From contig JAMPBN010000001.1 of assembly GCA_023666665.1 (NCBI GenBank), positions 271,598-328,704 of the forward strand: a stretch of DNA of 57,107 nt. The letters run 5' to 3'. The notes under the pieces are model-generated. The model made no database searches, was not told the DNA's origin, and saw only the letters and a list, made by a program, of their open reading frames with translations. The DNA is from Prevotella sp. (lineage in GTDB: Bacteria; Bacteroidota; Bacteroidia; Bacteroidales; Muribaculaceae). Below are positions 13,036-57,031 of this stretch, piece after piece (position 1 is the first letter of the stretch; each line of letters begins with the position of its first letter). The translations under genes and the position numbers were made by a program.

Positions 13036-14081
13036 AACTGAGTCAATTTAACTTCTACCTTCCGTCAGAGCTGATTGCACAGTACCCGCTGTCGGAACGC
13101 GACGAAGCCCGCCTCATGGTTCTCAACCGCAAGACCGGCAAGATTGAACACCGCATCTTCAAAGAAATCATTGACTACTTTGCAGATGGCGACGTCATGG
13201 TATTCAACGACACCAAAGTGTTCCCCGCCAAGCTCTACGGCAACAAGGAGCGCACCAACGCCAAGATTGAGGTTTTCCTGCTGCGCGAACTGAATCCTGA
13301 ACACAAGCTTTGGGACGTGCTGGTTGAGCCGGCCCGGAAAATCCGCATCGGCAACAAGCTCTACTTCGGTGAAGACGAAAGCCTTGTGGCAGAAGTCATT
13401 GACAACACCACCAGCCGCGGGCGCACCCTGCGCTTCCTCTTCGACGGCCCGCACGACGAGTTCAAGAAAACGCTCTACGCCCTCGGCTCCACCCCGCTGC
13501 CCGAACACATTACACGCCGCCCGGAACCCATCGACGAAGAGATGTTTCAGACCGTCTACGCCGAAAACGAGGGTGCCGTAGTGGCTCCCGGAGCCGGACT
13601 CCACTTCAGCAAGCTGCTGATGAAGCGTCTGGAGCTGAAAGGAGTGAACCTCGGCTATATGACCGTGCACTCCGGTTTGGGTACATTCCGAGAAATCGAC
13701 GTTGAAGACCTCTCCAAGCACCGCATTGACTCCGAAGAAGTTATAGTAAGCGAAGAACTGGTAGAGATGGTTAATCAAGCCAAAGACAACGAGAAGCAGG
13801 TGCTGGCAGTAGGCACCTCGGTGCTTCGCGGCATGGTAGCCGGCGAATCCATGGGCGGACACATGAAGAGTTTTGCCGGATGGAACAACAAGTTCATTGC
13901 CCCGCCTTACGACTTCGGAGTGCCCACGGCGCTGGTAACCAACTTCCACCTGCCGCTCTCCACCATGATTATGATGGAAGCAGCCTTTGGCGGCTATGAA
14001 AACGTGATGAAAGCCTACGAAACAGCCATTGCCGAAAAATATCGCTTCGGCACCTACGGCGACTCCCTACTAATAATTTAA
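13032..14081 (+). CDS. queA: S-adenosylmethionine:tRNA ribosyltransferase-isomerase QueA
   Basis: This 349-residue enzyme is the late step of queuosine synthesis: it transfers and rearranges the ribosyl part of SAM onto 7-aminomethyl-7-deazaguanine in tRNA. The N-terminal LPSELIAQYPL motif, the central MTVHSGLGTF region and the LVTNFHLPLSTMIMM C-terminal motif are all present. The ATG at 13032 overlaps the truB stop. A longer frame opening upstream at 12912 runs inside truB and is not real. Confidence 0.95.
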   Translation: MKLSQFNFYLPSELIAQYPLSERDEARLMVLNRKTGKIEHRIFKEIIDYFADGDVMVFNDTKVFPAKLYGNKERTNAKIEVFLLRELNPEHKLWDVLVEPARKIRIGNKLYFGEDESLVAEVIDNTTSRGRTLRFLFDGPHDEFKKTLYALGSTPLPEHITRRPEPIDEEMFQTVYAENEGAVVAPGAGLHFSKLLMKRLELKGVNLGYMTVHSGLGTFREIDVEDLSKHRIDSEEVIVSEELVEMVNQAKDNEKQVLAVGTSVLRGMVAGESMGGHMKSFAGWNNKFIAPPYDFGVPTALVTNFHLPLSTMIMMEAAFGGYENVMKAYETAIAEKYRFGTYGDSLLII

Positions 14082-14098
14082 CTCCTAACTCCTAACTC

Positions 14099-14659
14099 AT
14101 GACTGACCCCAAGACCTACCTCGACCCTGCAGAGGAAAAAATGCAGATGGCAGTAGCATTCCTTGACGAAGCTCTCAGCCACATCCGCGCCGGCAAGGCC
14201 AACCCCAAGCTCCTTGACGGCATCAGAGTTGACTACTACGGCTCTGCAGCCCCCATATCAAACGTTGCCAACGTCAGCGTGCCCGATGCCCGCACAATCG
14301 TAATCACCCCCTGGGAGAAGTCAATGTTTAAAGTGATTGAAAAAGTTATCATTGACTCCGAGCTCGGCATTACACCCGAAAACAATGGCGAGGTTATCCG
14401 CCTCTCAATTCCCCCGCTGACCGAAGAACGCCGCAAAACCCTGGTCAAGCAGAGCAAAGCCGAAGCTGAAACTGCCAAAGTCAGCGTGCGCAACGCTCGC
14501 CGCGATGCTATCGACGGCCTGAAAAAGGCAATCAAACAAGGTATGCCCGAAGACGTTGAAAAAGACGCCGAAGCTTCCGCACAGAAGCTCCACGACAAGT
14601 ATCTCAAGCAAATCGACGACCTCTTCGCTGCCAAGGAGAAGGAGATTCTCACCGTTTGA
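14099..14659 (+). CDS. frr: Ribosome recycling factor
   Basis: This 186-residue protein works with EF-G to split post-termination ribosomes. It has the three-helix-bundle sequence with the conserved IRAGKANP segment near 30 and the paired C-terminal helices rich in Lys, Glu and Arg. It is preceded by a tandem CTCCTAA tract. The stop overlaps the next ATG by one base (TGATG). Confidence 0.96.
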
Positions 14660-15237
14660 TGACTCTGAAAAAACGCATACTCGCGGCAGCAATGGCGATA
14701 TTCAGCGCCATTGCTGCCTGCGCTGAATTTACGGCGACAGATGCCTTGACCTCTGCCCCCGAGGAGGTGCGCGGCCCGCTGAGCGCATCCAAGCTCGCCG
14801 ATCTCGTTGAATATGCCCGCGCCGGAATGCTCAGCCACACGGAGAAAAACGCCGTTGGCACCGAAGCTCGCTTCTGGCACCTTGACGGCGTACGCGCGGA
14901 GCTTCAAACCGGCCCGGGACGCACCCTGACGCTCCAGCTGCTGCCGGTGAAGAACGACACGGTGATTGCCGTAATCGAGACCCTCACCTCGCAGCAACCC
15001 GACAGCCGTATGACCATATATTCGCGCAACTGGGTTCCGCAGCCAAAACTTTGGAAAGAGCCCAAACCGAGCGAATGGGGCAAGGTTGACCCGCTGCCAA
15101 TCCTGTTGGTGGAATATACTTACAGCGCTGATTCCGGAACACTTACGCTGACCAACCACTCCGAAGAAAAAGACCGTATGCTCCCCTCCATGCACTACCG
15201 CTGGACTGCCAAAGGTTTCAAACGAATCAAAGAATGA
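14659..15237 (+). CDS. DUF3256 family secreted protein
   Basis: This 192-residue protein has an N-terminal signal peptide (about 1-20, ending AACA), so it is periplasmic or surface-exposed. The rest resembles the Bacteroidales family DUF3256 and ends in a basic WTAKGFKRIKE segment. No catalytic motif was recognised. I chose the ATG at 14659 over the TTG one codon earlier. It is coupled on both sides: frr upstream by one base, xseA downstream by an ATGA overlap. Function unknown. Confidence 0.75.
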   Translation: MTLKKRILAAAMAIFSAIAACAEFTATDALTSAPEEVRGPLSASKLADLVEYARAGMLSHTEKNAVGTEARFWHLDGVRAELQTGPGRTLTLQLLPVKNDTVIAVIETLTSQQPDSRMTIYSRNWVPQPKLWKEPKPSEWGKVDPLPILLVEYTYSADSGTLTLTNHSEEKDRMLPSMHYRWTAKGFKRIKE

Positions 15238-16544
15238 CCGACCAAGAGCCTACATATTACTCCCTGTTGCAACTTCAGGAGCGGCTGCGCGACCTCGTGG
15301 CGGCCTGCCCGATGTCGCAAAACGTGTGGATTACCGCAGAGCTGAGCGACGTGCGCCAGAGCGGCGGCCATTGCTATATGGAGCTGCTGCAGAAAGATGA
15401 GCGCACCGGGCAGACCGTGGCAAAAGCCCGCGCCACCATCTGGGCAAATCTTTGGCGCAAAATCAGCGCCGACTTTCTCAACTCCACGGGGCAACCCTTT
15501 GCCTCGGGGCTGAAAGTCATGGTACGCGTAACCGCCGGCTATCATCCGCTCTACGGAATGAACCTCAACATCACGGCAGTAAACTCATCGTACACCATGG
15601 GCGAACGTGAACGCAAGCGCCGCGAAATCCTTGAACGCCTTAAGCGCGAGGGGGTTATCAACGACAATAAGCAACTCGAATTTCCCCGCCCTACGCAGCG
15701 CATCGCCGTGATTTCATCGGCTACTGCTGCCGGCTACGGCGACTTTATGAACCATTTGCTCCATAACCCCAGGCGGCTGCGATTCAACGTCAGGCTCTTT
15801 CCGGCCACGGTGCAGGGCGAGCAGACTGCCGCAAGCGTCATTGAGCAGCTTGAGGCCATTGCCGCCGCAGAAGATGATTTTGACTGCGTCTGCATAATTC
15901 GCGGAGGTGGAGCTACCACCGACCTCGACGGCTTCGACGATTACCGCCTGGCGCTCAACGTGGCGCAATTTCCTCTGCCCATAATAGTAGGCATTGGTCA
16001 TGAGCGCGACACCACCGTGCTTGACTATATTGCATGTCAGCGCGTCAAAACTCCCACCGCCGCCGCAGAATTTCTTGTAGGCCTCGGCCAGCAGGAACTC
16101 GACAACGTGTTCAACCTCGGCGGCGCACTGCTTCAAAGCGTCACCGATACCCTTGCCGGAGCCAAACAGCAGTTGGCATACATTGCCGGTGCACTCCCCA
16201 CTGCTCCCGGGGCGGCAATAGAACGCGCCGGCCGACGGCTCGACAACCTCACCGCCGCGCTTGCCAGGGTGTCAACAACCCGCCTGCAGCCGTTGCAGAA
16301 TCGCCTTGACCGATACGCCGATGCGCTGAAAAACATCACAGGCAATGCCACGCGCCATGCTGCCACAAAGCTTCAAGGCTACGAGCGGCTCATTGACGCG
16401 CTCTCGCCCAAAGCCACGATGCGACGCGGATTTTCCGTGACCCGCATTAATGGCAAAGCCATAACCTCAACCGAAAATATCACCGCCGGGGTAGCCCTTG
16501 AAACAGAACTCGCCGCCGGCACCATCACATCAATAGTAAAATAA
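15234..16544 (+). CDS. xseA: Exodeoxyribonuclease VII large subunit
   Basis: This 436-residue catalytic subunit of exonuclease VII degrades single-stranded DNA from both ends. It has an N-terminal OB fold (about 10-110, starting around WITAELSD), then the nuclease core with the IIRGGGA and GIGHERDTT motifs, and a C-terminal helical region for small-subunit binding. xseB follows directly, so both subunits are co-expressed. Confidence 0.95.
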   Translation: MTDQEPTYYSLLQLQERLRDLVAACPMSQNVWITAELSDVRQSGGHCYMELLQKDERTGQTVAKARATIWANLWRKISADFLNSTGQPFASGLKVMVRVTAGYHPLYGMNLNITAVNSSYTMGERERKRREILERLKREGVINDNKQLEFPRPTQRIAVISSATAAGYGDFMNHLLHNPRRLRFNVRLFPATVQGEQTAASVIEQLEAIAAAEDDFDCVCIIRGGGATTDLDGFDDYRLALNVAQFPLPIIVGIGHERDTTVLDYIACQRVKTPTAAAEFLVGLGQQELDNVFNLGGALLQSVTDTLAGAKQQLAYIAGALPTAPGAAIERAGRRLDNLTAALARVSTTRLQPLQNRLDRYADALKNITGNATRHAATKLQGYERLIDALSPKATMRRGFSVTRINGKAITSTENITAGVALETELAAGTITSIVK

Positions 16545-16545
16545 T

Positions 16546-16749
16546 ATGGATAAGCCCGTTAAAGAAATGACTTACACTGAGGCTGTGACTCAGCTGGAGC
16601 AAATACTCGCCTATATGCAGAGCGAAAAGTGCGACATCGACAAACTGTCGGCTCTAACGCGCCGCGCAACTGAGCTGCTCGCCGAATGCAAGTCGCGCCT
16701 CACCGCCACCGATGAAGAACTCCGCACCATTCTCTCCCAAATGCAATGA
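16546..16749 (+). CDS. xseB: Exodeoxyribonuclease VII small subunit
   Basis: This 67-residue helical protein forms a sheath on XseA. The family pattern YTEAVTQLEQIL followed by a second amphipathic helix (LTRRATELLAECKSRL) is clear. It starts one base after xseA and overlaps the next gene by four bases. Confidence 0.92.
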   Translation: MDKPVKEMTYTEAVTQLEQILAYMQSEKCDIDKLSALTRRATELLAECKSRLTATDEELRTILSQMQ

Positions 16750-49797: not shown

Positions 49798-50646
49798 TTA
49801 GGGGTATTGGCGGAGGGCGTAGGTGCGCTCACGGAGGAAGACACCGAGAGTGTCGGGGGTGGCGGCGTGGGGGGCCTGTTCTTCAACGCTGATGGGCTGC
49901 CCGATGGTGACATGAATGGTCTTTCCGGCTTTTTTCATAATTTCACGCGGCAGCATCAGCGAGCGTAACGGCCAGCATATATGACCCATCAAGTTGAACA
50001 GCTTGGAGTTGGAGCCCTGAAAATAAATCGGCACTACGGGGACTTTGGCGCGATGAATGATGCGGAGTACCGACTCCTGCCAGGGGCGGTCAATCAGCTG
50101 TCCCTTCCAGTTGGTCTTGCTCATTGCGCCGGCGGGGAAGAACCCCATAGGCTTGCCCTCTTTGAGCTGACGCAGACATTCGGCAATGCCGCGAACGCTC
50201 ACGGCTCGCTTGGCGGGGTCTTTTTGCGCCCAGGCATCTACGGCAATAAAGTTGGGGCGCAGTCCGCTCACGCGGTTCAATATCATGTTGACCATAACCT
50301 TAAATTCAGGGCGACGAGAGCCCACGAGGTCAATCAGCGCAATGCCGTCGAGCGCACCGAAGGGGTGGTTGCTCACTGTTATAAACGCGCCCTCGGGGAG
50401 GCGGTCAAGTATTTCTTCGTTGTCGATTTTCAGCGATATATTGAGCGACTTGTCGAGCAGCTTGCGGGCACATTCGGGGCCGGCCGTATCACACGCTATG
50501 GAGTGTACGCGGTTCATATCATCCATTTTCAGCGTGTGCATCAGCCAGCGCGCAACCTTCGGGTGGCCTTCAAGCTGCGGAATCAGTTGCATCACCTCTT
50601 CATCGGTGAGGACTTCGGGGCGAACGGTATATTTTTCTTCAGTCAT
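49798..50646 (-). CDS. Lysophospholipid acyltransferase-like protein (PlsC/hemolysin-type)
   Basis: This 282-residue enzyme has the acyltransferase motif NHPFGALDG (His94, Asp100), in the H-x5-D form known for hemolysin-like and ornithine- or glycine-lipid O-acyltransferases instead of the H-x4-D of PlsC. A later FPAGAMS block and VVPIYFQG block complete the fold. There is no clear membrane helix at the N-terminus. It is last in the pdxA-pgpA-PIP synthase-AUR1 operon, overlapping AUR1 by four bases, so acylation of a lipid made by that operon is likely. Alternative: an aminolipid acyltransferase. Confidence 0.8.
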   Translation of the reverse strand: MTEEKYTVRPEVLTDEEVMQLIPQLEGHPKVARWLMHTLKMDDMNRVHSIACDTAGPECARKLLDKSLNISLKIDNEEILDRLPEGAFITVSNHPFGALDGIALIDLVGSRRPEFKVMVNMILNRVSGLRPNFIAVDAWAQKDPAKRAVSVRGIAECLRQLKEGKPMGFFPAGAMSKTNWKGQLIDRPWQESVLRIIHRAKVPVVPIYFQGSNSKLFNLMGHICWPLRSLMLPREIMKKAGKTIHVTIGQPISVEEQAPHAATPDTLGVFLRERTYALRQYP

Positions 50647-51575
50647 TTTTTCAAAGAGATATATGAGGCATATTTGCCAATAAAACGCTTGAATGCGGGA
50701 ATTTTCATCAGCCCGAACTCAAAAACCGCAAATCCAAGCAGAGCGCAGCATATGCCCAAAGTTACGTCAATTAAATAATGATGGGATGTATATACGGCTG
50801 TAAACCAAATGCCAACGGTAATTATACCGAGGGCTATCTTCCACGCGGCGGGCGATTTTGAACGCAGGGCGAAAAGGAACGCAACAAAAGTATATGCGCT
50901 GTGGAGCGACGGCACGGCGGCAAACACGTTTGAATTGCGGGTATAGAGGGCATCAAAAATCCCCAGTCCGGTCATTTGGTCAAAAGCGGCAAGTCCAGCA
51001 GTAGACCCCGGAGTGCCGAAAATCGGCTCAAGGCCATATTCGGCGACAAACCAAGGCGGAGCGGCAGGGTGGATATAATACCCGGCAAAGCCGATAAAAT
51101 TAACCAACAGAAAGACGAGCGAGAAGCGGATTGACCACTCCGGCCGCCCGCTGAAATACAGCCACAAGCCGAAAGCAATCGGCACCGGAACCCAGCATAG
51201 GTAGAACAACCCGCAGAAGAAGTCAACAACGGCATTGGTGTGCAGGGCAAAAAACTCGTTGGGGGTCAGGATTACCGAGGCGGTGTGAATGCCAAACAGC
51301 GACTTTTCGGCAGCATAGATGCCGCCAACGTCAACCGGGTTTACTTCATAGTTCGGCACTATGTTCATCCAGTCATAGCTGATTCCGAAAATGATAAAGG
51401 GGAGCAGCGCAACCACGGTTTTGCGCGACCATCGCGAGGCAAAAAACAATGCGGCGATGAGCAGCGCCAAAAAAGGATGCTCCGGACGCATACCCACACA
51501 CAGCGCTGTCACCGCAAGCCACACCACCAAAGCCGTGACGCAAATCAAGGTTTCTTTACGATTGGGAAAACTCAT
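50643..51575 (-). CDS. AUR1-like membrane phosphotransferase (inositol phosphorylceramide synthase type)
   Basis: This 310-residue protein has about eight membrane helices and the PAP2/AUR1 signature. GYYIHPAAPPWF near 166-176 is typical of AUR1-like enzymes. His225 sits in VPSLHSA, and HHYLID supplies His265 or His266 and Asp270. Eukaryotic AUR1 transfers inositol-phosphate from PI to ceramide. Gut Bacteroidetes make inositol sphingolipids, with a related gene beside a PIP synthase (recollection of the B. thetaiotaomicron inositol-lipid cluster). The neighbours here fit that reading. A generic PAP2 phosphatase is the alternative. Confidence 0.78.
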   Translation of the reverse strand: MSFPNRKETLICVTALVVWLAVTALCVGMRPEHPFLALLIAALFFASRWSRKTVVALLPFIIFGISYDWMNIVPNYEVNPVDVGGIYAAEKSLFGIHTASVILTPNEFFALHTNAVVDFFCGLFYLCWVPVPIAFGLWLYFSGRPEWSIRFSLVFLLVNFIGFAGYYIHPAAPPWFVAEYGLEPIFGTPGSTAGLAAFDQMTGLGIFDALYTRNSNVFAAVPSLHSAYTFVAFLFALRSKSPAAWKIALGIITVGIWFTAVYTSHHYLIDVTLGICCALLGFAVFEFGLMKIPAFKRFIGKYASYISLKK

Positions 51576-52267
51576 TTCTGCGCGTTTAACGCCTTGCGGC
51601 AGTGGTTAATGCGGGCAAAGGCCGTAAGGTTGGCAAATATTGCAATGATAATCATTGCGCATACGGCAATAACGTCGGGATTGAACGAGTCGCCGGGAGT
51701 CTGACAGATGCCAACAATGCCGGTAGCTATGATTCCTACTGTGGCAACCACCACACGCTCGGGGCGCTGCATAAAACCGATTTTGCATTCAATATCGAGC
51801 CCCTCGGCGCGGGCGCGTACATAGCTGACCATCAGCGAGCCGACGAGAGCCACAAAAGTGATAATTGCGCCCCACAGGTCGCCACGCTGAATCAGGTAGA
51901 AGGCAAGACCACCGAGGGTAAACATCTCGCAATAGCGGTCGAGCACGGAGTCATACATCGCGCCGAAAGTTGACTGCATATTTCCCAGGCGGGCTACCTG
52001 GCCGTCGAGCATATCAAAGACGCTGAAAAGAATAATGATGATGCCGCCCCACATAAACACCTCATATGGGTTTCCGCCCTGCGAGGCAATGTAGCCGGCC
52101 CACACCATAAACGCCGCTCCGGCAATCTGGCCGAGCAGACCCGCGGTCGTAACCATATTTGGGGTCACGCCACATTTTATCAGCAATTTAACGAATGGAT
52201 TGATAACGAAATAGATGCCTTGCTGAAGAGCATCGCGGCAGCTTTTTGCATTTTTCTTTATGTCCAT
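51572..52267 (-). CDS. CDP-alcohol phosphatidyltransferase, probable phosphatidylinositol-phosphate synthase
   Basis: This 231-residue membrane enzyme has a complete CDP-alcohol signature: Asp85, Asp88, Gly89, Ala92, Arg93, Gly102, Asp106 and Asp110. Downstream SYVRARAE (148-155) and RPER (168-171) match the inositol-phosphate-binding elements of actinobacterial PIP synthases, favouring CDP-diacylglycerol plus inositol phosphate giving PIP. It overlaps pgpA by 10 bases and AUR1 by four. No inositol-phosphate synthase gene is in the window, so inositol must come from elsewhere in the genome or from the host. Confidence 0.85.
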   Translation of the reverse strand: MDIKKNAKSCRDALQQGIYFVINPFVKLLIKCGVTPNMVTTAGLLGQIAGAAFMVWAGYIASQGGNPYEVFMWGGIIIILFSVFDMLDGQVARLGNMQSTFGAMYDSVLDRYCEMFTLGGLAFYLIQRGDLWGAIITFVALVGSLMVSYVRARAEGLDIECKIGFMQRPERVVVATVGIIATGIVGICQTPGDSFNPDVIAVCAMIIIAIFANLTAFARINHCRKALNAQK

Positions 52268-52776
52268 ATAATGAAATAGTTGAGAGCGAACAGTATCACG
52301 GCGGAGTAGAAGCCTGCGAGCAAGTCATCGGCCATCATGCCGACCCCGCCGGGGAGTTTCTCCATTTTGCGGATACCTAAGGGTTTGAATATGTCAAAGA
52401 ATCGAAACAGTGCGAGAGACAAAAGTATTTCCCACCACGGACACATAATCACCGGAATCAGCGAGAACCATTGTCCCACGGTTTCATCCACGCAAGCAAT
52501 CACCGGGTCAGGACCCCAATATTTTTCAGACACATTGCTGGTCCATGTTCCGGCAATGGCGAGCACTACGGTGGCAATTGCCGTGACAAGTATGCAAACT
52601 GTGGTGTCTGCCCAGATATAGAGCGGCAACCATAATATAATGGCCAATATTGCGCCCCACGTGCCGGGAGCCACCGGCAGGTAGCCAACGCCCAGCGAGG
52701 TGCATATCAGCTTGGGGAGCAGCGGAAATTCGCTGTCGCGGCTATGATCGATTTTTCTATGTGGTTCTGCGTGCAT
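52258..52776 (-). CDS. pgpA: PgpA-family lipid phosphatase
   Basis: This 172-residue membrane protein has the PgpA motifs GYLPVAPGTWG near the start, DPVIACVDETVGQW, and GGVGMMADDLLAG near the end. PgpA removes phosphate from phosphatidylglycerophosphate. Beside a PIP synthase it may instead dephosphorylate PIP to PI, which is context-based inference. It follows pdxA by three bases. Confidence 0.88.
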   Translation of the reverse strand: MHAEPHRKIDHSRDSEFPLLPKLICTSLGVGYLPVAPGTWGAILAIILWLPLYIWADTTVCILVTAIATVVLAIAGTWTSNVSEKYWGPDPVIACVDETVGQWFSLIPVIMCPWWEILLSLALFRFFDIFKPLGIRKMEKLPGGVGMMADDLLAGFYSAVILFALNYFIIWT

Positions 52777-52779
52777 GGA

Positions 52780-53853
52780 TTAAAATTCCCGTGCGGGGCG
52801 ATCTTGATAGAGTTTTTTAAGAGGATTGGCAAAAGCCTCATCGTGGATTTCGCGATTACGCAGCGCGTCAATGGCCATATATATAGCCTGACGCATTGAC
52901 TGCGCGTCGGCAACTCCCTTGCCGGCAATGTCGTAAGCGGTGCCATGGTCGGGACTTGTGCGCACAAACGGCAGTCCGGCGGTAAAGTTCACGCCCGAGG
53001 TGCCACAGAGGGTTTTGAACGGGATGAGACCTTGGTCATGATACATCGCGAGGATGCCATCGAAATGCACGTGATGCCCGGCGCCGAAAAATCCGTCGGC
53101 GGGATATGGCCCGAACGCCTGGATTTTCAAATTGTTGGCTTCGGCAACGGCGGGGATAATGATTTCCTCTTCCTCCTTGCCGAGAAGACCGCCGTCGCCG
53201 GCGTGGGGATTGAGCGCCAACACGGCGATTCGCGGGGAGTGCACGCCAAAGTCGCGAATCAGCGAGCTATTAAATTCCTCAAGTCTTCTGACTATCAGCT
53301 CCGTATTGATTTCGCCGGCGACCTTGGCAAGAGGCAGATGAACGGTAGCCAACGCTACCCGCAAACCGTCCTCCGATGCCATAATCATAAGAGCGTGATT
53401 GCCTGCATCGCCCAATGCGGCCTCAAAATATTCCGTATGGCCGGGAAAATGGAACTCAGGGCCTTGAATGTTCTCCTTATTAATCGGTGCGGTCACTATC
53501 ACGTCAATTTCTCCGGTCTTGAGGTCGGAAGTGGCACGTTCAAGGGCAGCGAGCGCGGCTTTTCCGGCGGCCTCGGTGCTGTGGCCTGGAGTGAGTTGTT
53601 CATCGTCGCCGACAACGTTGACAAAATTCAGATGTCCGTCTTTAGCCTGGCTACCCGATTCGGCACGCCACACTGGCACCGTAGGAATCTCTAACTGCTT
53701 GCGGTAGGCCGAAGCAAGGCGCTGCGAGCCGTAAACCACCGGGGTGCAGAGGTCAAACATCTGCGGGTCTTCAAAGGCCTTGAGAATAATCTCGTAGCCA
53801 ATGCCATTATAGTCGCCGTGGGTGATTCCCACCTTTATTTTTCTATCTTCCAT
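52780..53853 (-). CDS. pdxA: 4-hydroxythreonine-4-phosphate dehydrogenase PdxA
   Basis: This 357-residue enzyme of the DXP-dependent pyridoxal phosphate pathway contains GITHGDYNGIGYEI at its start, FPGHTEYF and the metal/substrate-binding MYHDQGLIPFKTL motif. It is first gene of the lipid operon, an unrelated partner whose placement gives the operon its promoter at 53875-53910. Confidence 0.93.
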   Translation of the reverse strand: MEDRKIKVGITHGDYNGIGYEIILKAFEDPQMFDLCTPVVYGSQRLASAYRKQLEIPTVPVWRAESGSQAKDGHLNFVNVVGDDEQLTPGHSTEAAGKAALAALERATSDLKTGEIDVIVTAPINKENIQGPEFHFPGHTEYFEAALGDAGNHALMIMASEDGLRVALATVHLPLAKVAGEINTELIVRRLEEFNSSLIRDFGVHSPRIAVLALNPHAGDGGLLGKEEEEIIIPAVAEANNLKIQAFGPYPADGFFGAGHHVHFDGILAMYHDQGLIPFKTLCGTSGVNFTAGLPFVRTSPDHGTAYDIAGKGVADAQSMRQAIYMAIDALRNREIHDEAFANPLKKLYQDRPAREF

Positions 53854-53874: not shown

Positions 53875-53910
53875 GGTGCAAAATTACAAAAATTTTCGTA
53901 ATTTTGCACC
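53875..53910. promoter_or_regulatory. Symmetric divergent promoter, pdxA operon and nucleotidyltransferase operon
   Basis: A perfect 13-base inverted repeat (53875-53887 and 53898-53910) is separated by 10 bases. Each arm holds a -7 box TAATTTTG pointing outward (53886-53879 on -, 53899-53906 on +). Each promoter's -33 region must lie in the other arm, so the two cannot easily fire together. Transcription would start close to both start codons. Confidence 0.75.
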
Positions 53911-53917
53911 GATAATT

Positions 53918-54622
53918 ATGCATTATGCTATTCTTGCAGCCGGAGAGGGCTCGCGACTCGACATGGTCGCCGCCAAACCGCTGGCCCCGATTCAGGGTCA
54001 GACCCTCATCAGCCGCCTGCTGAATATCATAGCGCGGAGGCCTGACACGCAACAGGTTGTTGCCGTAATCAACAGCCGCAAGCCCGAAATAGAAAGTCAT
54101 CTTCGCGGGCTGAATCTACCCTGTGAGTTGAAAGTCATTTCCACACAAACCCCCTCGGCCGCCCACACGCTGCAGCTGGCTCTTGACCATCTGCCCGACG
54201 ACGAGCAGGTCATCGCCCTGACGGTCGACACAGTTTTTCTCGCCTCTGAGTTCAACAGCTATGTTGATTCATTCAAGTCAACGGTGTCGGCCGACGTACT
54301 GATGGGTGCGACCCGCTACGCCGATGACGAGAAGCCCCTCTACATCGAAGTTGGCAAAGAAAGCCGAATCCGCGCATTCCGCGACTTTCCGCTTGCCGGG
54401 GCCGACCACGTTTCGGCGGGAATCTATGGCATCAGCCACCGGGCGAAGCAGGCTTTGCAACGCGCCATCAGCCTCGGCATCAATGGGCTGCGCGAGGCCC
54501 AGCGATCGCTGCTGCTCCAAAACCTTGATGTCAAGGCATATGAATTCAGCCAGGTTTTCGATGTTGACCGCCCCCACGACCTGCTCAAAGCCCGCGAGTT
54601 TCTAATCAATCACGAAGACTGA
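53918..54622 (+). CDS. Sugar/alcohol-phosphate nucleotidyltransferase-like protein
   Basis: This 234-residue NTP-transferase fold has LAAGEGSRLD (6-15), KPLAPIQGQTLI near 20, and an acidic LTVDTVF motif near 100 for metal binding. It lacks a left-handed beta-helix tail, so it has only nucleotidylyl transfer. I chose the ATG at 53918; upstream codons run through the promoter. The start is only 11 bases after the -7 box. It is coupled to the ATP-grasp gene by TGATG and followed by a CDP-alcohol phosphotransferase, so making a CDP-activated alcohol is plausible. The MobA or glucose-1-phosphate transferase branches are alternatives. Confidence 0.8.
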   Translation: MHYAILAAGEGSRLDMVAAKPLAPIQGQTLISRLLNIIARRPDTQQVVAVINSRKPEIESHLRGLNLPCELKVISTQTPSAAHTLQLALDHLPDDEQVIALTVDTVFLASEFNSYVDSFKSTVSADVLMGATRYADDEKPLYIEVGKESRIRAFRDFPLAGADHVSAGIYGISHRAKQALQRAISLGINGLREAQRSLLLQNLDVKAYEFSQVFDVDRPHDLLKAREFLINHED

Positions 54623-55455
54623 TGGCCATAGCAGTAGCAGCAATTCTCCGCGCCGGGCATTTCTCGCCCAACAACGTTGGCCGCGATGCCGCGATTCTCA
54701 ACGACGTTGCCGCCGAGCTGCGCCGCAAGGGCATCGCCGTAAACATTTACAGCGAGGAGCAATTCATTGCCCACGGCATCGGCAGCGAACAGATTGTAAT
54801 GGCTATGACCCGCGATTCACGCTCCACTACCCGACTCCTTGCTCTTGAAAACCAGGGGCGCATAGTGGTAAATTCCGGCCACGCCATTACCCACTGCATT
54901 CGCTCGAATATGGTCAAAATATTTGAGCGCGCAGAGATTCCGCAGCCGCCAACACTCCTTGTCAGCACCAACGAAGACGTGCGCAGCAGCCTCAAAGAGG
55001 CCGGTTTCGGGGCGTGTTGGGTGAAACGCGCCGATTGCCAGACCATACATAAGGAAGACGTGGTGCGCGTGCGCCACATTGAAGAAGCTCAGGAGCTACT
55101 CAGCGAATTTTTTATACGTGGAATAGAAAAAGCCACAGTAGCTCAACACCTCGACGGCCTCTATGCCAAGTTCTACGGCGTGGACTCCGTTGGATTCTTC
55201 CATTTTTTCTTCACGGCAAAAGAGCCGGATGAGGGAGTATTTAACGCACCCAAATTCCGCCACGTCTGTGAGGATGCCGCCCGGGCGCTCGGGGTGACGG
55301 TTTATGGCGGTGACGCGGTAGTAAACCCCAAGACGGGGGAGTTTCACATCGTGTCATTCAACGACTGGCCCGGATTTGCGCCCTGCCGCAAAGAAGCAAC
55401 CAAAGCAATAACCAAATTCGTGGCGACACACGCCCGCAAACTCCTGCGTAAGTAA
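54622..55455 (+). CDS. ATP-grasp-like protein
   Basis: This 277-residue soluble protein has a Rossmann-like N-terminal part (1-95). An ATP-grasp-like C-terminal domain ends in the metal-binding pattern GGDAVVNPKTGEF followed by FNDWPGF near 255-260. This resembles the D...N/D-x-P ending of RimK, D-Ala ligase and ITPK-fold kinases. It may ligate an amino acid or phosphorylate an alcohol. It sits between a nucleotidyltransferase and a CDP-alcohol transferase with one-base overlaps on both sides (TGATG, TAATG), which links it to the same pathway. Substrate unknown. Confidence 0.65.
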   Translation: MAIAVAAILRAGHFSPNNVGRDAAILNDVAAELRRKGIAVNIYSEEQFIAHGIGSEQIVMAMTRDSRSTTRLLALENQGRIVVNSGHAITHCIRSNMVKIFERAEIPQPPTLLVSTNEDVRSSLKEAGFGACWVKRADCQTIHKEDVVRVRHIEEAQELLSEFFIRGIEKATVAQHLDGLYAKFYGVDSVGFFHFFFTAKEPDEGVFNAPKFRHVCEDAARALGVTVYGGDAVVNPKTGEFHIVSFNDWPGFAPCRKEATKAITKFVATHARKLLRK

Positions 55456-56342
55456 TGGACAGCGACTTCAAATCATCCTTGAAGAGCCTCGACACCGAAG
55501 AACACATTGACCTGTGGTTCTACCGGCGCATCGGCTGGGCTGAAGCAAAACTTGCCGCACGGCTCGGCATATCGCCAAACGCCATCACCATCGCATCTAT
55601 TTTCATCGGCATTGCTGCCGGCATATGTTTTTATCCAACAAATATTTGGGTTAACATCGGCGGTTTGTTGCTGCTGACGCTCGCCAACTCTTTCGACTCA
55701 GCCGACGGCCAGCTTGCCCGCATCACGGGCAAATACTCGCAAATAGGCCGAATTCTTGACGGTGTGGCCGGTAATCTCTGGTTTATCACCATTTACGTGT
55801 GCATCTGTTTGCGAACGAGCCTTACCGTAGGCTGGTTTGAGGCGCATCCGTGGGTAATTTGGACAGTTGCTCTGATTTCAGGCGGCTGCCACGCCTTTCA
55901 GGCTGCAATGGCCGACTTTTACCGCCAAATGCACCTGCGTGCCGTAAATGGTACCGACGAATTTGAAGGCTCGACAGTAATCAAAGACAAAGCCCTTAAC
56001 AGCCGGGGAATCAAGCGATTGTTTCTGTTGGCATATTGGCACTACACCCGCTGGCAGGAAGCGCTGACGCCCAACGCGTTGCGCATGTGCGCGATGGGTC
56101 CGCTCAGTAATGAGTTTCGCCAAGGCTCACTGCCGCTGATGAAGTGGGCCAACGTGTTGACTTTCAACTGGCGCTCAATTACTCTGGCAGTCTGCCTTTT
56201 GTGTGGCGCACCGTGGGTTTACTTCATATGCGAGCTGACCCTGGGCAACGCTATTTTGGCATATATGATTCTCAGCCACGAACGCCTCTGTCAGAAAATG
56301 ATTGCGGCAGTCAGCCCAACGGCCTGTGCGTCGGGCGAATAA
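55455..56342 (+). CDS. CDP-alcohol phosphotransferase with altered catalytic motif
   Basis: This 295-residue membrane protein has about six helices. The CDP-alcohol motif is present (Asp81, Asp84, Gly85, Ala88, Arg89, Gly98, Asp102), but the fourth aspartate, which acts as base in the family, is Gly106 (DGVAGN). Asn107 is adjacent. It differs from the PIP synthase at 51572 and lacks SYxRARAE/RPER. It ends in a helix-rich C-terminal half. Its last 52 bases overlap the convergent PAP2 gene. It may use a different base, bind without catalysis, or transfer an unusual headgroup made by the two upstream proteins. Confidence 0.82.
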   Translation: MDSDFKSSLKSLDTEEHIDLWFYRRIGWAEAKLAARLGISPNAITIASIFIGIAAGICFYPTNIWVNIGGLLLLTLANSFDSADGQLARITGKYSQIGRILDGVAGNLWFITIYVCICLRTSLTVGWFEAHPWVIWTVALISGGCHAFQAAMADFYRQMHLRAVNGTDEFEGSTVIKDKALNSRGIKRLFLLAYWHYTRWQEALTPNALRMCAMGPLSNEFRQGSLPLMKWANVLTFNWRSITLAVCLLCGAPWVYFICELTLGNAILAYMILSHERLCQKMIAAVSPTACASGE

Positions 56343-57031
56343 GTCGGCACCACAACAGCCGCCTCGCCGCGGCGTTTGTCCAGCCCGAGCCAGCGGCGAT
56401 TGAAAGGCAGCAGCCACTCGGCGGCGCGAGCCGACAATATGCCGATGCCGGCGCCCGCAAGCACGTCGTTAAGCCAATGCCTGCCATTGAGAATACGCAT
56501 CACTCCTACCCCGGAAGCCACGACATAACCCGCCGCTCCTACCCAGGGGCCATAGTCCTGACGCAGCAGTTCCGCGCCGAGAAATGCCGTGGTGGTGTGT
56601 CCCGACGGAAAGGAATTGAGCCGCGAGCCGGTCGGGCGGCGCTCTCTAACGCAATGCTTGGTGCCTTGAGTTAGCGCTGTGGCGATTATCGCACCGGTGG
56701 CTCCGACTATCAAGCGGTCAACAAACGGACGGCGTGACTTCACCCCGGCAAAGTCCAAAAACAGATAACCCGCAGCCGGAAGATACTGAATATAATCATC
56801 ATATGGCGCACAATTGTGGATTCCAATTTCATTGTTAATCCACTTGCGAGCGCGTTTCAGCGGCGGAGTAGCCACCGAAACTGCCCCGACGGCAATCAGA
56901 GATGCTGGAAGTATGAGCTGCTGCGGGGTAAACTTAACGGTATCAATTCCCTCGGTACGCACCGAGTCTTCTCCCCGGACTTGGCCGACGAGAATCAACA
57001 GCGCTATAAGAAGAATTCCCAGGCGTTTCAC
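56291..57031 (-). CDS. PAP2-family phosphatase, exported-type
   Basis: This 246-residue protein has a hydrophobic start (1-20) and the full acid-phosphatase triad: KHCVRERRP (K125, R132-P133), FPSGH (PSGH 142-145), and R179-x5-H185-x3-D189. The active site would face the periplasm. Roles include undecaprenyl or phosphatidic-acid dephosphorylation. The start is GTG at 57031, six bases after a -7 box. The 3' end overlaps the CDP-alcohol transferase by 52 bases. Confidence 0.87.
   Translation of the reverse strand: MKRLGILLIALLILVGQVRGEDSVRTEGIDTVKFTPQQLILPASLIAVGAVSVATPPLKRARKWINNEIGIHNCAPYDDYIQYLPAAGYLFLDFAGVKSRRPFVDRLIVGATGAIIATALTQGTKHCVRERRPTGSRLNSFPSGHTTTAFLGAELLRQDYGPWVGAAGYVVASGVGVMRILNGRHWLNDVLAGAGIGILSARAAEWLLPFNRRWLGLDKRRGEAAVVVPTYSPDAQAVGLTAAIIF

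What the first reader, a model, noticed from the sequence alone, without database searches (positions are those of the whole stretch)
53918..56342. Coupled nucleotidyltransferase, ATP-grasp and CDP-alcohol transferase operon: candidate undescribed headgroup pathway
Three genes with one-base stop/start overlaps encode, in order, an NTP-transferase fold, an ATP-grasp-like protein and a CDP-alcohol phosphotransferase. Chemically this is a complete route: make or modify a phospho-alcohol, activate it with CTP, transfer it onto a lipid or polymer. It lies head to head with a PIP synthase/AUR1 operon, so a second headgroup for the same sphingolipids or phospholipids is an attractive idea. A related logic exists in inositol-phosphate cytidylyltransferase/DIPP synthase enzymes, but the ATP-grasp member is not part of that scheme as I know it.
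Basis: partly seen in the sequence, partly recalled or inferred. Interest (0 to 1): 0.72.

Follow-up and report, generated by a model that had tools for sequence, protein, structure and literature searches.

The report
Inositol-lipid operon with idle ATP-grasp partner
Three neighbouring genes of a gut bacterium look like a route for putting inositol-type head groups on membrane lipids; the middle one, an ATP-using enzyme, tends to lose its active site in lineages that have lost a partner phosphatase, which hints at what both do.

Summary
Three overlapping genes encode a nucleotidyltransferase (NTP), an ATP-grasp protein (GRASP) and a CDP-alcohol phosphotransferase (CDPAP), divergent from PdxA and a PIP-synthase/AUR1-type operon. 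The set is conserved (28 of 30 loci, the window's included) and in four loci fused, once all three in one 820-aa protein. Many relatives add a HAD phosphatase and MIPS. That gene content matches the unconfirmed 'alternative inositol lipid cluster' of Heaver et al. 2022, whose main text does not mention an ATP-grasp member. New here: 71 of 71 HAD-linked GRASP copies keep the Asp/Asp/Asn metal triad, while 14 of 18 informative HAD-less copies, this window's among them (D245S), have lost part of it; in loci fetched after the idea arose, 0 of 51 against 4 of 7. The NTP diverges too, CDPAP hardly. The window's genome lacks the HAD. I read GRASP as an ITPK-like inositol-phosphate kinase whose phosphate the HAD removes after transfer; here that step is probably gone and NTP probably activates inositol phosphate directly. 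The kinase role is inferred: the fold fits ligases equally well. Verdict: new variant of a known kind.

The parts
53918..54622 (+). NTP: nucleotidyltransferase of the IPCT/sugar-nucleotidyltransferase fold, proposed CTP:inositol-phosphate cytidylyltransferase; belongs to a diverged clade found in HAD-less genomes
54622..55455 (+). GRASP: full ATP-grasp fold, distantly ITPK-like; metal-triad Asp245 replaced by Ser here (probable pseudoenzyme)
55455..56342 (+). CDPAP: CDP-alcohol phosphotransferase, motif DxxDGxxARx8GxxxDxxxG (the usual last Asp is Gly in the family)
53875..53910 (.). 36-bp near-perfect palindrome between the divergent operons with a TAnnTTTG (Bacteroidota -7 type, motif recalled) on each strand: probable divergent promoter pair
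52780..53853 (-). PdxA (4-hydroxythreonine-4-phosphate dehydrogenase); recurrent neighbour of the cluster, probably a genomic anchor
52258..52776 (-). PgpA-family protein; BT_1525 of B. thetaiotaomicron, a PIP-DAG phosphatase, is annotated as the same family
51572..52267 (-). PIP synthase, BT_1523-like (NF052561, 267 bits, below cut-off 350)
50643..51575 (-). AUR1-like phosphoinositol dihydroceramide synthase (NF052609, 485 bits, above cut-off 480)
49798..50646 (-). acyltransferase (PF19576; OlsF/GlsA models hit below their cut-offs), same operon direction
56291..57031 (-). PAP2 phosphatase, convergent, overlapping the 3' end of CDPAP by 52 bp; stands beside CDPAP where many relatives carry the HAD gene

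Best explanation
The trio is a derived form of an inositol-headgroup pathway that activates the headgroup, not the lipid. Proposed complete route in relatives: MIPS makes inositol 3-phosphate; GRASP, an ITPK-like ATP-grasp kinase, adds a second phosphate; NTP couples the inositol bisphosphate to CTP; CDPAP transfers the phospho-inositol-phosphate to (dihydro)ceramide or diacylglycerol; the HAD removes the extra phosphate. Shown here: gene set, order, fusions, co-occurrence with MIPS, serine palmitoyltransferase in the genome, folds, and the joint loss of HAD and GRASP metal ligands. Inferred: every substrate, the kinase activity, the order of steps and the lipid acceptor. In the window's genome the HAD is absent, GRASP has Ser for the central metal Asp, and NTP is diverged at positions next to its catalytic residues. 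There NTP probably activates inositol phosphate directly, CDPAP transfers it, and GRASP is kept as a non-catalytic partner. PIP synthase, the PgpA-like phosphatase and AUR1 give the same cell a second inositol-lipid route under a paired divergent promoter.
For: Full cluster NTP-GRASP-CDPAP-LPG_TM-HAD-MIPS in relatives; NTP, GRASP, CDPAP and HAD together in 12 of 13 loci fetched after the phylum-wide search, 11 of the 13 outside the class, 10 with MIPS in reach. Fusions in four loci. GRASP in 34 of the 48 MIPS-bearing genomes among 295. SPT model over its cut-off in 12 of 17 genomes tested, the window's among them; SPT near the cluster in L281. HAD-linked GRASP: triad intact in 71 of 71 and in 16 of 16 more copies. 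HAD-less informative copies: altered in 14 of 18, Fisher 4e-13; in the loci fetched after the idea was formed, 4 of 7 against 0 of 51, p 8e-5. No HAD genome-wide in 14 of 25 genomes tested, among them the window's. Among 32 positions conserved in HAD-linked GRASP, 15 of the 31 deviations of HAD-less copies fall on the three triad positions and 10 on neighbouring I244/S251, while R13, K20, D104, D215 and D217 of NTP and the DxxDGxxAR...GxxxD residues of CDPAP are kept in 84 of 84 and 87 of 87 rows. Seven triad changes, P 3.8e-6 if all fall on HAD-less branches. NTP positions T101, L100, M191, I6 and H218 changed in 10-12 of 12 HAD-less rows, CDPAP hardly. Best solved relative of the broad GRASP profile is an inositol phosphate kinase (1z2n, 1.4e-9). 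B. vulgatus and P. veroralis, which carry the alternative cluster, make PI-DHC (PMC9246714 passages). ITPK1 acts on MIPS-derived inositol 3-phosphate in mammalian cells (PMC12077091 passages).
Confidence: 0.5

Rival explanations
1. Same parts, other order: the HAD first dephosphorylates inositol 3-phosphate to free inositol, GRASP re-phosphorylates it at another position (for example D-1), NTP makes CDP-inositol and CDPAP transfers it. The HAD/GRASP pair would move the phosphate and so fix the stereochemistry of the linkage.
For: Explains the joint loss of HAD and GRASP metal ligands equally well. The HAD resembles type-IA small-molecule phosphatases (TIGR02253, TIGR02252 and YjjG models, all below their cut-offs), which usually act on soluble substrates (recalled).
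Against: Heaver et al. report CDPAP fused to the HAD in P. veroralis, which suits a HAD acting after transfer. ITPK kinases are known for phosphorylated inositols rather than free inositol (recalled).
Confidence: 0.2
2. GRASP is an ATP-grasp ligase (RimK/LysX-like) that joins a carboxylate such as an amino acid to the headgroup, its donor or a partner; the HAD is an unrelated clean-up phosphatase and both are lost together when the modification is dropped.
Against: The best match of the broad profile is an inositol phosphate kinase, and for the window protein itself ITPK1 is the only molecule in the PDB at E<=1. K183, invariant in alignment A1, after H176 resembles the ITPK pattern (NHNNKIVKVF printed), where RimK and PsnB print Arg. 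Linkage to MIPS and a phosphatase.
Confidence: 0.2
3. The trio of the window's genome is a decaying relic: with HAD gone, GRASP dead and PIP synthase/AUR1 present, it makes little or nothing. (Concerns the window's copy only and can hold beside any reading of the HAD-bearing clusters.)
For: HAD missing, GRASP D245S, diverged NTP.
Against: All three frames are open and overlapping. CDPAP differs from the family at 1 of 65 conserved positions and NTP keeps its catalytic residues. The same state is kept in four congeners at 63-71% GRASP identity with few other changes at conserved positions. The paired divergent promoter motif is kept in three of them.
Confidence: 0.12
4. The NTP and CDPAP make a non-inositol product (for example glycerol-, ribitol- or sugar-phosphate on a lipid or polymer).
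For: CDPAP paralogues sit with TagD-like (L249, L255) or IspD/TarI-like (L250) cytidylyltransferases in GRASP-free clusters. Caulobacter CpgD makes CDP-glycerate for a ceramide headgroup (PMC12275187 passages). MIPS is remote in the window's genome.
Against: MIPS sits in the held stretch in 50 of 80 named loci and in 10 of 13 distant loci. Inositol-phosphate cytidylyltransferases match the NTP profile over nearly its whole length (2xme, 4mnd, 4jd0). PI-DHC is made by alternative-cluster species.
Confidence: 0.12

Closest known systems
Putative alternative inositol-lipid cluster of Phocaeicola (Bacteroides) vulgatus and Prevotella (Heaver et al. 2022, PMC9246714)
   Same: NTP transferase, CDP-alcohol phosphotransferase, HAD hydrolase and MIPS in one cluster, with a lysyl-PG-synthase-like membrane protein nearby; proposed CDP-inositol route.
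   Different: Heaver's scheme has no ATP-grasp member and gives the HAD the role of PI-DHC synthase. The window lacks the HAD and local MIPS and adds the BT-like operon head to head. The B. vulgatus sequences could not be compared here; the match is by gene content and order.
BT_1522-1526 inositol-lipid cluster of B. thetaiotaomicron
   Same: Puts inositol phosphate onto lipid; PIPS, PgpA-like and AUR1 homologues are encoded beside the trio, and in some Muribaculaceae inserted between GRASP and CDPAP.
   Different: Uses an activated lipid (CDP-DAG) and inositol phosphate; the trio instead would activate the headgroup.
IPCT/DIPPS of thermophiles (Archaeoglobus 4mnd, Thermotoga 4jd0)
   Same: Cytidylyltransferase plus CDP-AP, fused in 4mnd; profile and fold similarity.
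   Different: Acceptor is inositol phosphate, not lipid (recalled); no ATP-grasp; our CDPAP lacks the last Asp of the motif.
ITPK1 family inositol phosphate kinases
   Same: ATP-grasp fold, best match of the broad profile in the PDB, same D/D/N metal positions, works downstream of MIPS in eukaryotes.
   Different: Very distant; below Pfam's threshold; substrate unknown; window copy lacks the central metal Asp.
Caulobacter CpgD (ceramide diphosphoglycerate)
   Same: A cytidylyltransferase of this fold supplying a CDP-activated ceramide headgroup.
   Different: Substrate phosphoglycerate; no ATP-grasp or MIPS in the passages read.

Membership tests
Alternative inositol-lipid cluster (Heaver 2022) | NTP transferase and CDP-alcohol phosphotransferase in one cluster | tested here: met
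Alternative inositol-lipid cluster (Heaver 2022) | HAD hydrolase in the cluster | tested here: not met
   Not met in the window or its genome; a HAD lies within 9 kb on the same strand for 71 of 92 GRASP copies in wide loci, the window's counted
Alternative inositol-lipid cluster (Heaver 2022) | MIPS nearby | tested here: not met
   One MIPS in the genome, about 0.92 Mb away on the same contig; adjacent in many relatives
Alternative inositol-lipid cluster (Heaver 2022) | CDP-AP motif DX2DGX2AR...GX3DX3D | tested here: not met
   GX3DX3G: last Asp is Gly in 84 of 87 CDPAP rows, the window's included; three rows (L039_0, L200_0, L201_0) are a separate, distant CDP-AP
Alternative inositol-lipid cluster (Heaver 2022) | Sequence similarity to BVU_RS13095/13105/13115 | not testable with these tools
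Alternative inositol-lipid cluster (Heaver 2022) | Host makes PI-DHC | not testable with these tools
   Needs lipidomics; SPT model over its cut-off in the genome (655.6 bits)
ATP-grasp superfamily | Complete three-part ATP-grasp fold | tested here: met
ATP-grasp superfamily | Two acidic residues and Asn binding Mg-ATP | tested here: not met
   D231 S245 N247 in the window; DDN in 71 of 71 HAD-linked copies; metal role recalled
ITPK (inositol tris/tetrakisphosphate kinase) family | Pfam PF05770 above gathering score | tested here: not met
   13.2 bits against 23 for the window; at E<=0.1 it matches 5 of 31 family members, best E 6.4e-6
ITPK (inositol tris/tetrakisphosphate kinase) family | Closest solved relative by profile is an ITPK | tested here: inconclusive
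   With profile A1 1z2n 1.4e-9 is ahead of PsnB 7.5e-7 and RimK 1.9e-5; with the narrower profile A2 PsnB (1.0e-4) and 1z2n (1.2e-4) tie
ITPK (inositol tris/tetrakisphosphate kinase) family | Phosphorylates inositol phosphates | not testable with these tools
   Needs assay
IPCT (inositol-1-phosphate cytidylyltransferase) | Full-length similarity to solved IPCTs | tested here: inconclusive
IPCT (inositol-1-phosphate cytidylyltransferase) | Makes CDP-inositol | not testable with these tools
   Needs assay
CDP-alcohol phosphotransferase family | PF01066 above cut-off and DxxDGxxAR | tested here: met
   43.7 bits against 22; motif in 87 of 87 rows
BT-like inositol-lipid cluster | PIPS, PgpA-like and AUR1-like genes together | tested here: met
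   Minus strand 50643-52776; PIPS is below its NCBIfam cut-off

The most novel reading that the evidence does not exclude
Bacteroidota make inositol sphingolipids by a 'phosphorylate, activate, transfer, dephosphorylate' route: an ITPK-like ATP-grasp kinase adds a second phosphate to inositol 3-phosphate, the bisphosphate is coupled to CTP and transferred to ceramide, and a HAD phosphatase clears the extra phosphate. When a lineage swaps the cytidylyltransferase and loses the phosphatase, the kinase is repeatedly disarmed at its metal ligands yet kept as a structural or regulatory subunit, a recurrent natural pseudoenzyme. The CDP-alcohol transferase is the constant core of a family of swappable headgroup modules.
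Probability: 0.35. Interest if true: 0.78.

Novelty: new variant of a known kind. Interest (0 to 1): 0.6.

Why it matters
Inositol and inositol lipids of B. thetaiotaomicron are tied to capsule, antimicrobial-peptide resistance and host fitness, and the alternative pathway was left unconfirmed (PMC9246714, passages). These data add a recurrent gene that the paper's main text does not mention, give the HAD a testable role other than PI-DHC synthase, and show an evolutionary signature (phosphatase loss with kinase disarming) that predicts which strains should differ. Named relatives, Duncaniella muris (L080) and Paramuribaculum intestinale (L122), carry NTP, GRASP, CDPAP and HAD nested with PgpA-like, PIPS and AUR1 genes, so the idea can be tested in named strains.

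Tried and rejected
Cell-wall sugar activation: rejected as main reading because the operon travels with MIPS, HAD and flippase-like genes and once lies near SPT, but the NTP's fold and profile cannot exclude a sugar-phosphate substrate. I expected HAD-less NTPs to resemble the IPCT/DIPPS model NF041135 more than HAD-linked ones. The five NTPs of one HAD-less clade that I gave (L183, L208, L239, L240, L245; 1.4e-8 to 7e-11) do beat four of five HAD-linked ones (L042, L045, L209, L231), but HAD-linked L048 beats them all (5.4e-14) and the window's own clade does not follow (2.2e-6 window, 6.3e-8 L168), so this was dropped. A GRASP+CDPAP fusion in L079, which I had noted, is an artefact of my script: a stop at residue 290 separates the two genes. 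Fold comparison as proof of kinase activity: dropped, since ligases tie or lead. Strict HAD/triad rule: not true, three HAD-less genomes keep the triad. Independent-pairs test on the tree: too few pairs. Whether the Phocaeicola vulgatus gene between BVU_RS13095 and RS13105 is GRASP: inferred from the locus-tag gap only.

Rows dropped before counts: of 92 GRASP copies, three HAD-less ones were set aside as uninformative (L187 truncated before the triad; L194 and L219 end within 450 bp of the gene), leaving 18; L032 is counted among the 18 although its genome has the HAD on another contig. The GRASP tree leaves out L206 and L187. The 92 copies are 38 order hits, 12 copies in 11 loci of the window's genus, 41 family hits picked from the listing, and the window; L037 gave no GRASP. 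It is not a random draw. The order loci were fetched before the idea; the genus loci raised it; the 60 loci were fetched after it, from listings that do not show residue 245, and are counted apart. The 80 named loci were selected by a pattern that requires D245 and were not used for that count.
Full report
WHAT IS THERE. The window (G000:C11:271598-328704) holds three overlapping + strand genes: NTP 53918-54622, GRASP 54622-55455, CDPAP 55455-56342. Divergent on the minus strand are PdxA, a PgpA-like phosphatase, a BT_1523-like PIP synthase, an AUR1-like PI-dihydroceramide synthase and an acyltransferase. Between PdxA and NTP lies a 36-bp near-perfect palindrome with one TAnnTTTG on each strand; the same pair of motifs is present in three congeners with the head-to-head layout (L168, L170, L171), with the palindrome itself found in L170. 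A PAP2 gene converges on CDPAP. The genome is probably from the family Muribaculaceae, judged from the names of the closest relatives, not from a label.

HOW WIDESPREAD. GRASP occurs in 40 of 295 Bacteroidales genomes (one of these, G029, is a weak local match), CDPAP in 45, both in 38. GRASP is in 185 of 198 genomes of the window's family and, by profile, in 15 of 395 genomes drawn over the phylum, the window's own included. Of the 30 best loci, 28 keep NTP-GRASP-CDPAP, the window's among them. Exceptions: L004, where GRASP stands alone beside PIP synthase and AUR1 genes, and L025, whose CDPAP and HAD lie on another contig. Fusions without internal stop: NTP+GRASP in L033, L035, L036; all three in L034, 820 aa.

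THE WHOLE CLUSTER. In many relatives the trio is followed by a lysyl-PG-synthase-type membrane protein, a HAD hydrolase and MIPS. In several, among them Duncaniella muris (L080) and Paramuribaculum intestinale (L122), PgpA-GtrA-PIPS-AUR1 genes are inserted between GRASP and CDPAP. Of 13 loci fetched after the phylum-wide search, 11 of them from outside the class, 12 have NTP, GRASP, CDPAP and HAD together, 10 with MIPS in reach. In one (L281, same class) serine palmitoyltransferase (736 bits, cut-off 640) lies within 5 kb on the same strand. The SPT model is over its cut-off in 12 of 17 genomes tested, the window's among them; four genomes from outside the class have 488-495 bits, below the cut-off, and G438 (76% complete) only a 137-bit match; the model also rings below its cut-off in 10 of the 14 control genomes and over it in one.

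COMPARISON WITH PRINT. Heaver et al. 2022 (PMC9246714; passages seen) describe an unconfirmed alternative cluster: NTP transferase, CDP-alcohol phosphotransferase, HAD, MIPS. They show PI-DHC in two species that carry it (B. vulgatus, P. veroralis) and report a CDPAP-HAD fusion in P. veroralis. Their locus tags (RS13095, RS13105, RS13115) skip one number between NTP and transferase and one between transferase and HAD, where GRASP and the membrane protein sit in our loci; that is inference. 'ATP-grasp' has 0 occurrences in that main text. Literature searches listed no paper that, judged from titles and abstracts, treats an ATP-grasp protein in this pathway; the library is open-access only.

THE CENTRAL RESULT. 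GRASP's D231, D245 and N247 align with D/D/N of the inositol phosphate kinase 1z2n (alignment printed; the metal role is recalled). In wide loci, 71 of 71 GRASP copies with the HAD on the same strand within 9 kb have DDN, and so do 16 of 16 copies in the 12 distant HAD-bearing loci. Of 21 copies without the HAD, 3 are uninformative. Of the other 18, 12 have lost D245 (5 Ser, 4 Asn, 2 Cys, 1 Ala), L228 has N247D, L031 has the conservative D231E, and four are intact: L032, whose genome has the HAD on another contig, plus L239, L240 and L247. Fisher on copies 4e-13. The idea arose from the window's genus; in the 60 loci fetched afterwards the counts are 0 of 51 HAD-linked and 4 of 7 HAD-less altered, p 8e-5, against 0 of 20 and 10 of 11 in the earlier ones. 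A whole-genome search of 25 genomes found no HAD in 14, the window's included; 10 of the 14 are at least 90% complete. Thirteen of the 14 have a readable triad, 10 altered (one of them the D231E of G139) and 3 intact. Three genomes of the window's genus (G352, G371, G401) carry two GRASP copies: the one beside the HAD keeps Asp, the other has Asn. Over 32 positions conserved in HAD-linked copies, the 18 HAD-less copies show 31 deviations: 15 on the three triad positions, 10 on neighbouring I244 and S251, 6 on the other 27. On the tree there are seven changes of the triad letters; HAD-less branches make up 10.2 of 60.6 units of length, so P is 3.8e-6 if all seven lie on them. As a yes/no trait the triad needs 4 changes, as does the HAD, and treekit's independent-pairs test has only 2-4 pairs and cannot be significant.

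THE NTP MOVES TOO. Of 46 positions conserved in 69 HAD-linked NTPs, T101 is changed in 12 of 12 HAD-less NTPs, I6, L100 and M191 in 11 and H218 in 10; most of these lie next to catalytic-type residues in sequence (D104, D217, the AAGxGSR loop; roles inferred by motif). CDPAP deviates at 0-4 of 65 positions in 13 HAD-less rows. In the NTP tree 11 of 12 HAD-less rows form two separate clades. So the headgroup-activating half of the pathway changes with HAD loss while the transferase half stays. These rows are few clades, not 12 independent cases.

READING. The simplest scheme that uses every gene: MIPS to inositol 3-phosphate, GRASP to a bisphosphate, NTP to CDP-inositol-phosphate, CDPAP to a phosphorylated inositol lipid, HAD to the final lipid. 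It parallels the PIP intermediate of the B. thetaiotaomicron route and agrees with the fusions NTP-GRASP, NTP-GRASP-CDPAP and (Heaver) CDPAP-HAD as neighbouring steps. When the HAD goes, a kinase product could not be finished, so GRASP would have to be disarmed or its product avoided; the NTP changes accordingly. The window's genome is in this derived state and has PIPS, the PgpA-like phosphatase and AUR1 as a second route. Kinase activity, substrates and order are inferred. The rival order (HAD first, then GRASP on free inositol) and a ligase role for GRASP remain open.

VERDICT. An ordinary-looking operon that belongs to a published but unconfirmed pathway type, with an overlooked recurrent component and an unusual evolutionary signature that makes its role testable.

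Noticed in passing
L249:7650-11704, L255:7912-11992: CDPAP paralogues in clusters without GRASP sit with a TagD-like glycerol-3-phosphate cytidylyltransferase (sub-cut-off), an SDR enzyme, the flippase-like protein and an acyltransferase: the same transferase type with another activating enzyme, perhaps a phosphoglycerol headgroup.
   Followed up: partly
L250:7756-10552: PdxA-CDPAP followed by an IspD/TarI-like cytidylyltransferase (240 aa, below the models' cut-offs), no GRASP or HAD in the stretch: a third activating module for the same transferase family.
   Followed up: partly
L273:6031-13371 and L276:5437-16674: In genomes outside the class the operon also holds an MlaE/MlaF/MlaD-like transporter, a class-III aminotransferase and a Gfo/Idh/MocA oxidoreductase (families tested for L273 only), which could make an amino-inositol headgroup and export it.
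   Followed up: partly
L272, L274, L275, L276: GRASP is duplicated in tandem in four of the loci outside the class, both copies with an intact triad.
   Followed up: no
L281:5114-6049 and 13243-16603: The cluster is flanked by serine palmitoyltransferase, a 373-aa protein without family hits and an NAD-dependent epimerase-type gene (ceramide synthesis candidates), and by a PfkB-type kinase on the other side.
   Followed up: partly
L039:4333-7811, also L200 and L201: A second, distant CDP-AP gene lies upstream of the cluster; in L039 it follows a HisC/CobD-like aminotransferase gene: possibly another headgroup pathway.
   Followed up: no
window:55455-56342: The CDPAP family has Gly where CDP-alcohol phosphotransferases carry the last motif Asp, usually taken as catalytic base (recalled); 84 of 87 rows.
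   Followed up: partly
L120:9387-9914: The small gene between PgpA and PIPS in nested clusters (position of BT_1524) is a GtrA-type membrane protein (PF04138).
   Followed up: partly
L060, L063, L076, L094: Public records titled Clostridium, Paenibacillus or Lachnospiraceae carry Muribaculaceae-like clusters; the MAG titles are probably wrong.
   Followed up: no
window:134-7704: Two very large adjacent + strand ORFs, 1066 aa without Pfam hits and 1457 aa with CARDB, MAM and weak fn3 matches: probable surface proteins.
   Followed up: no
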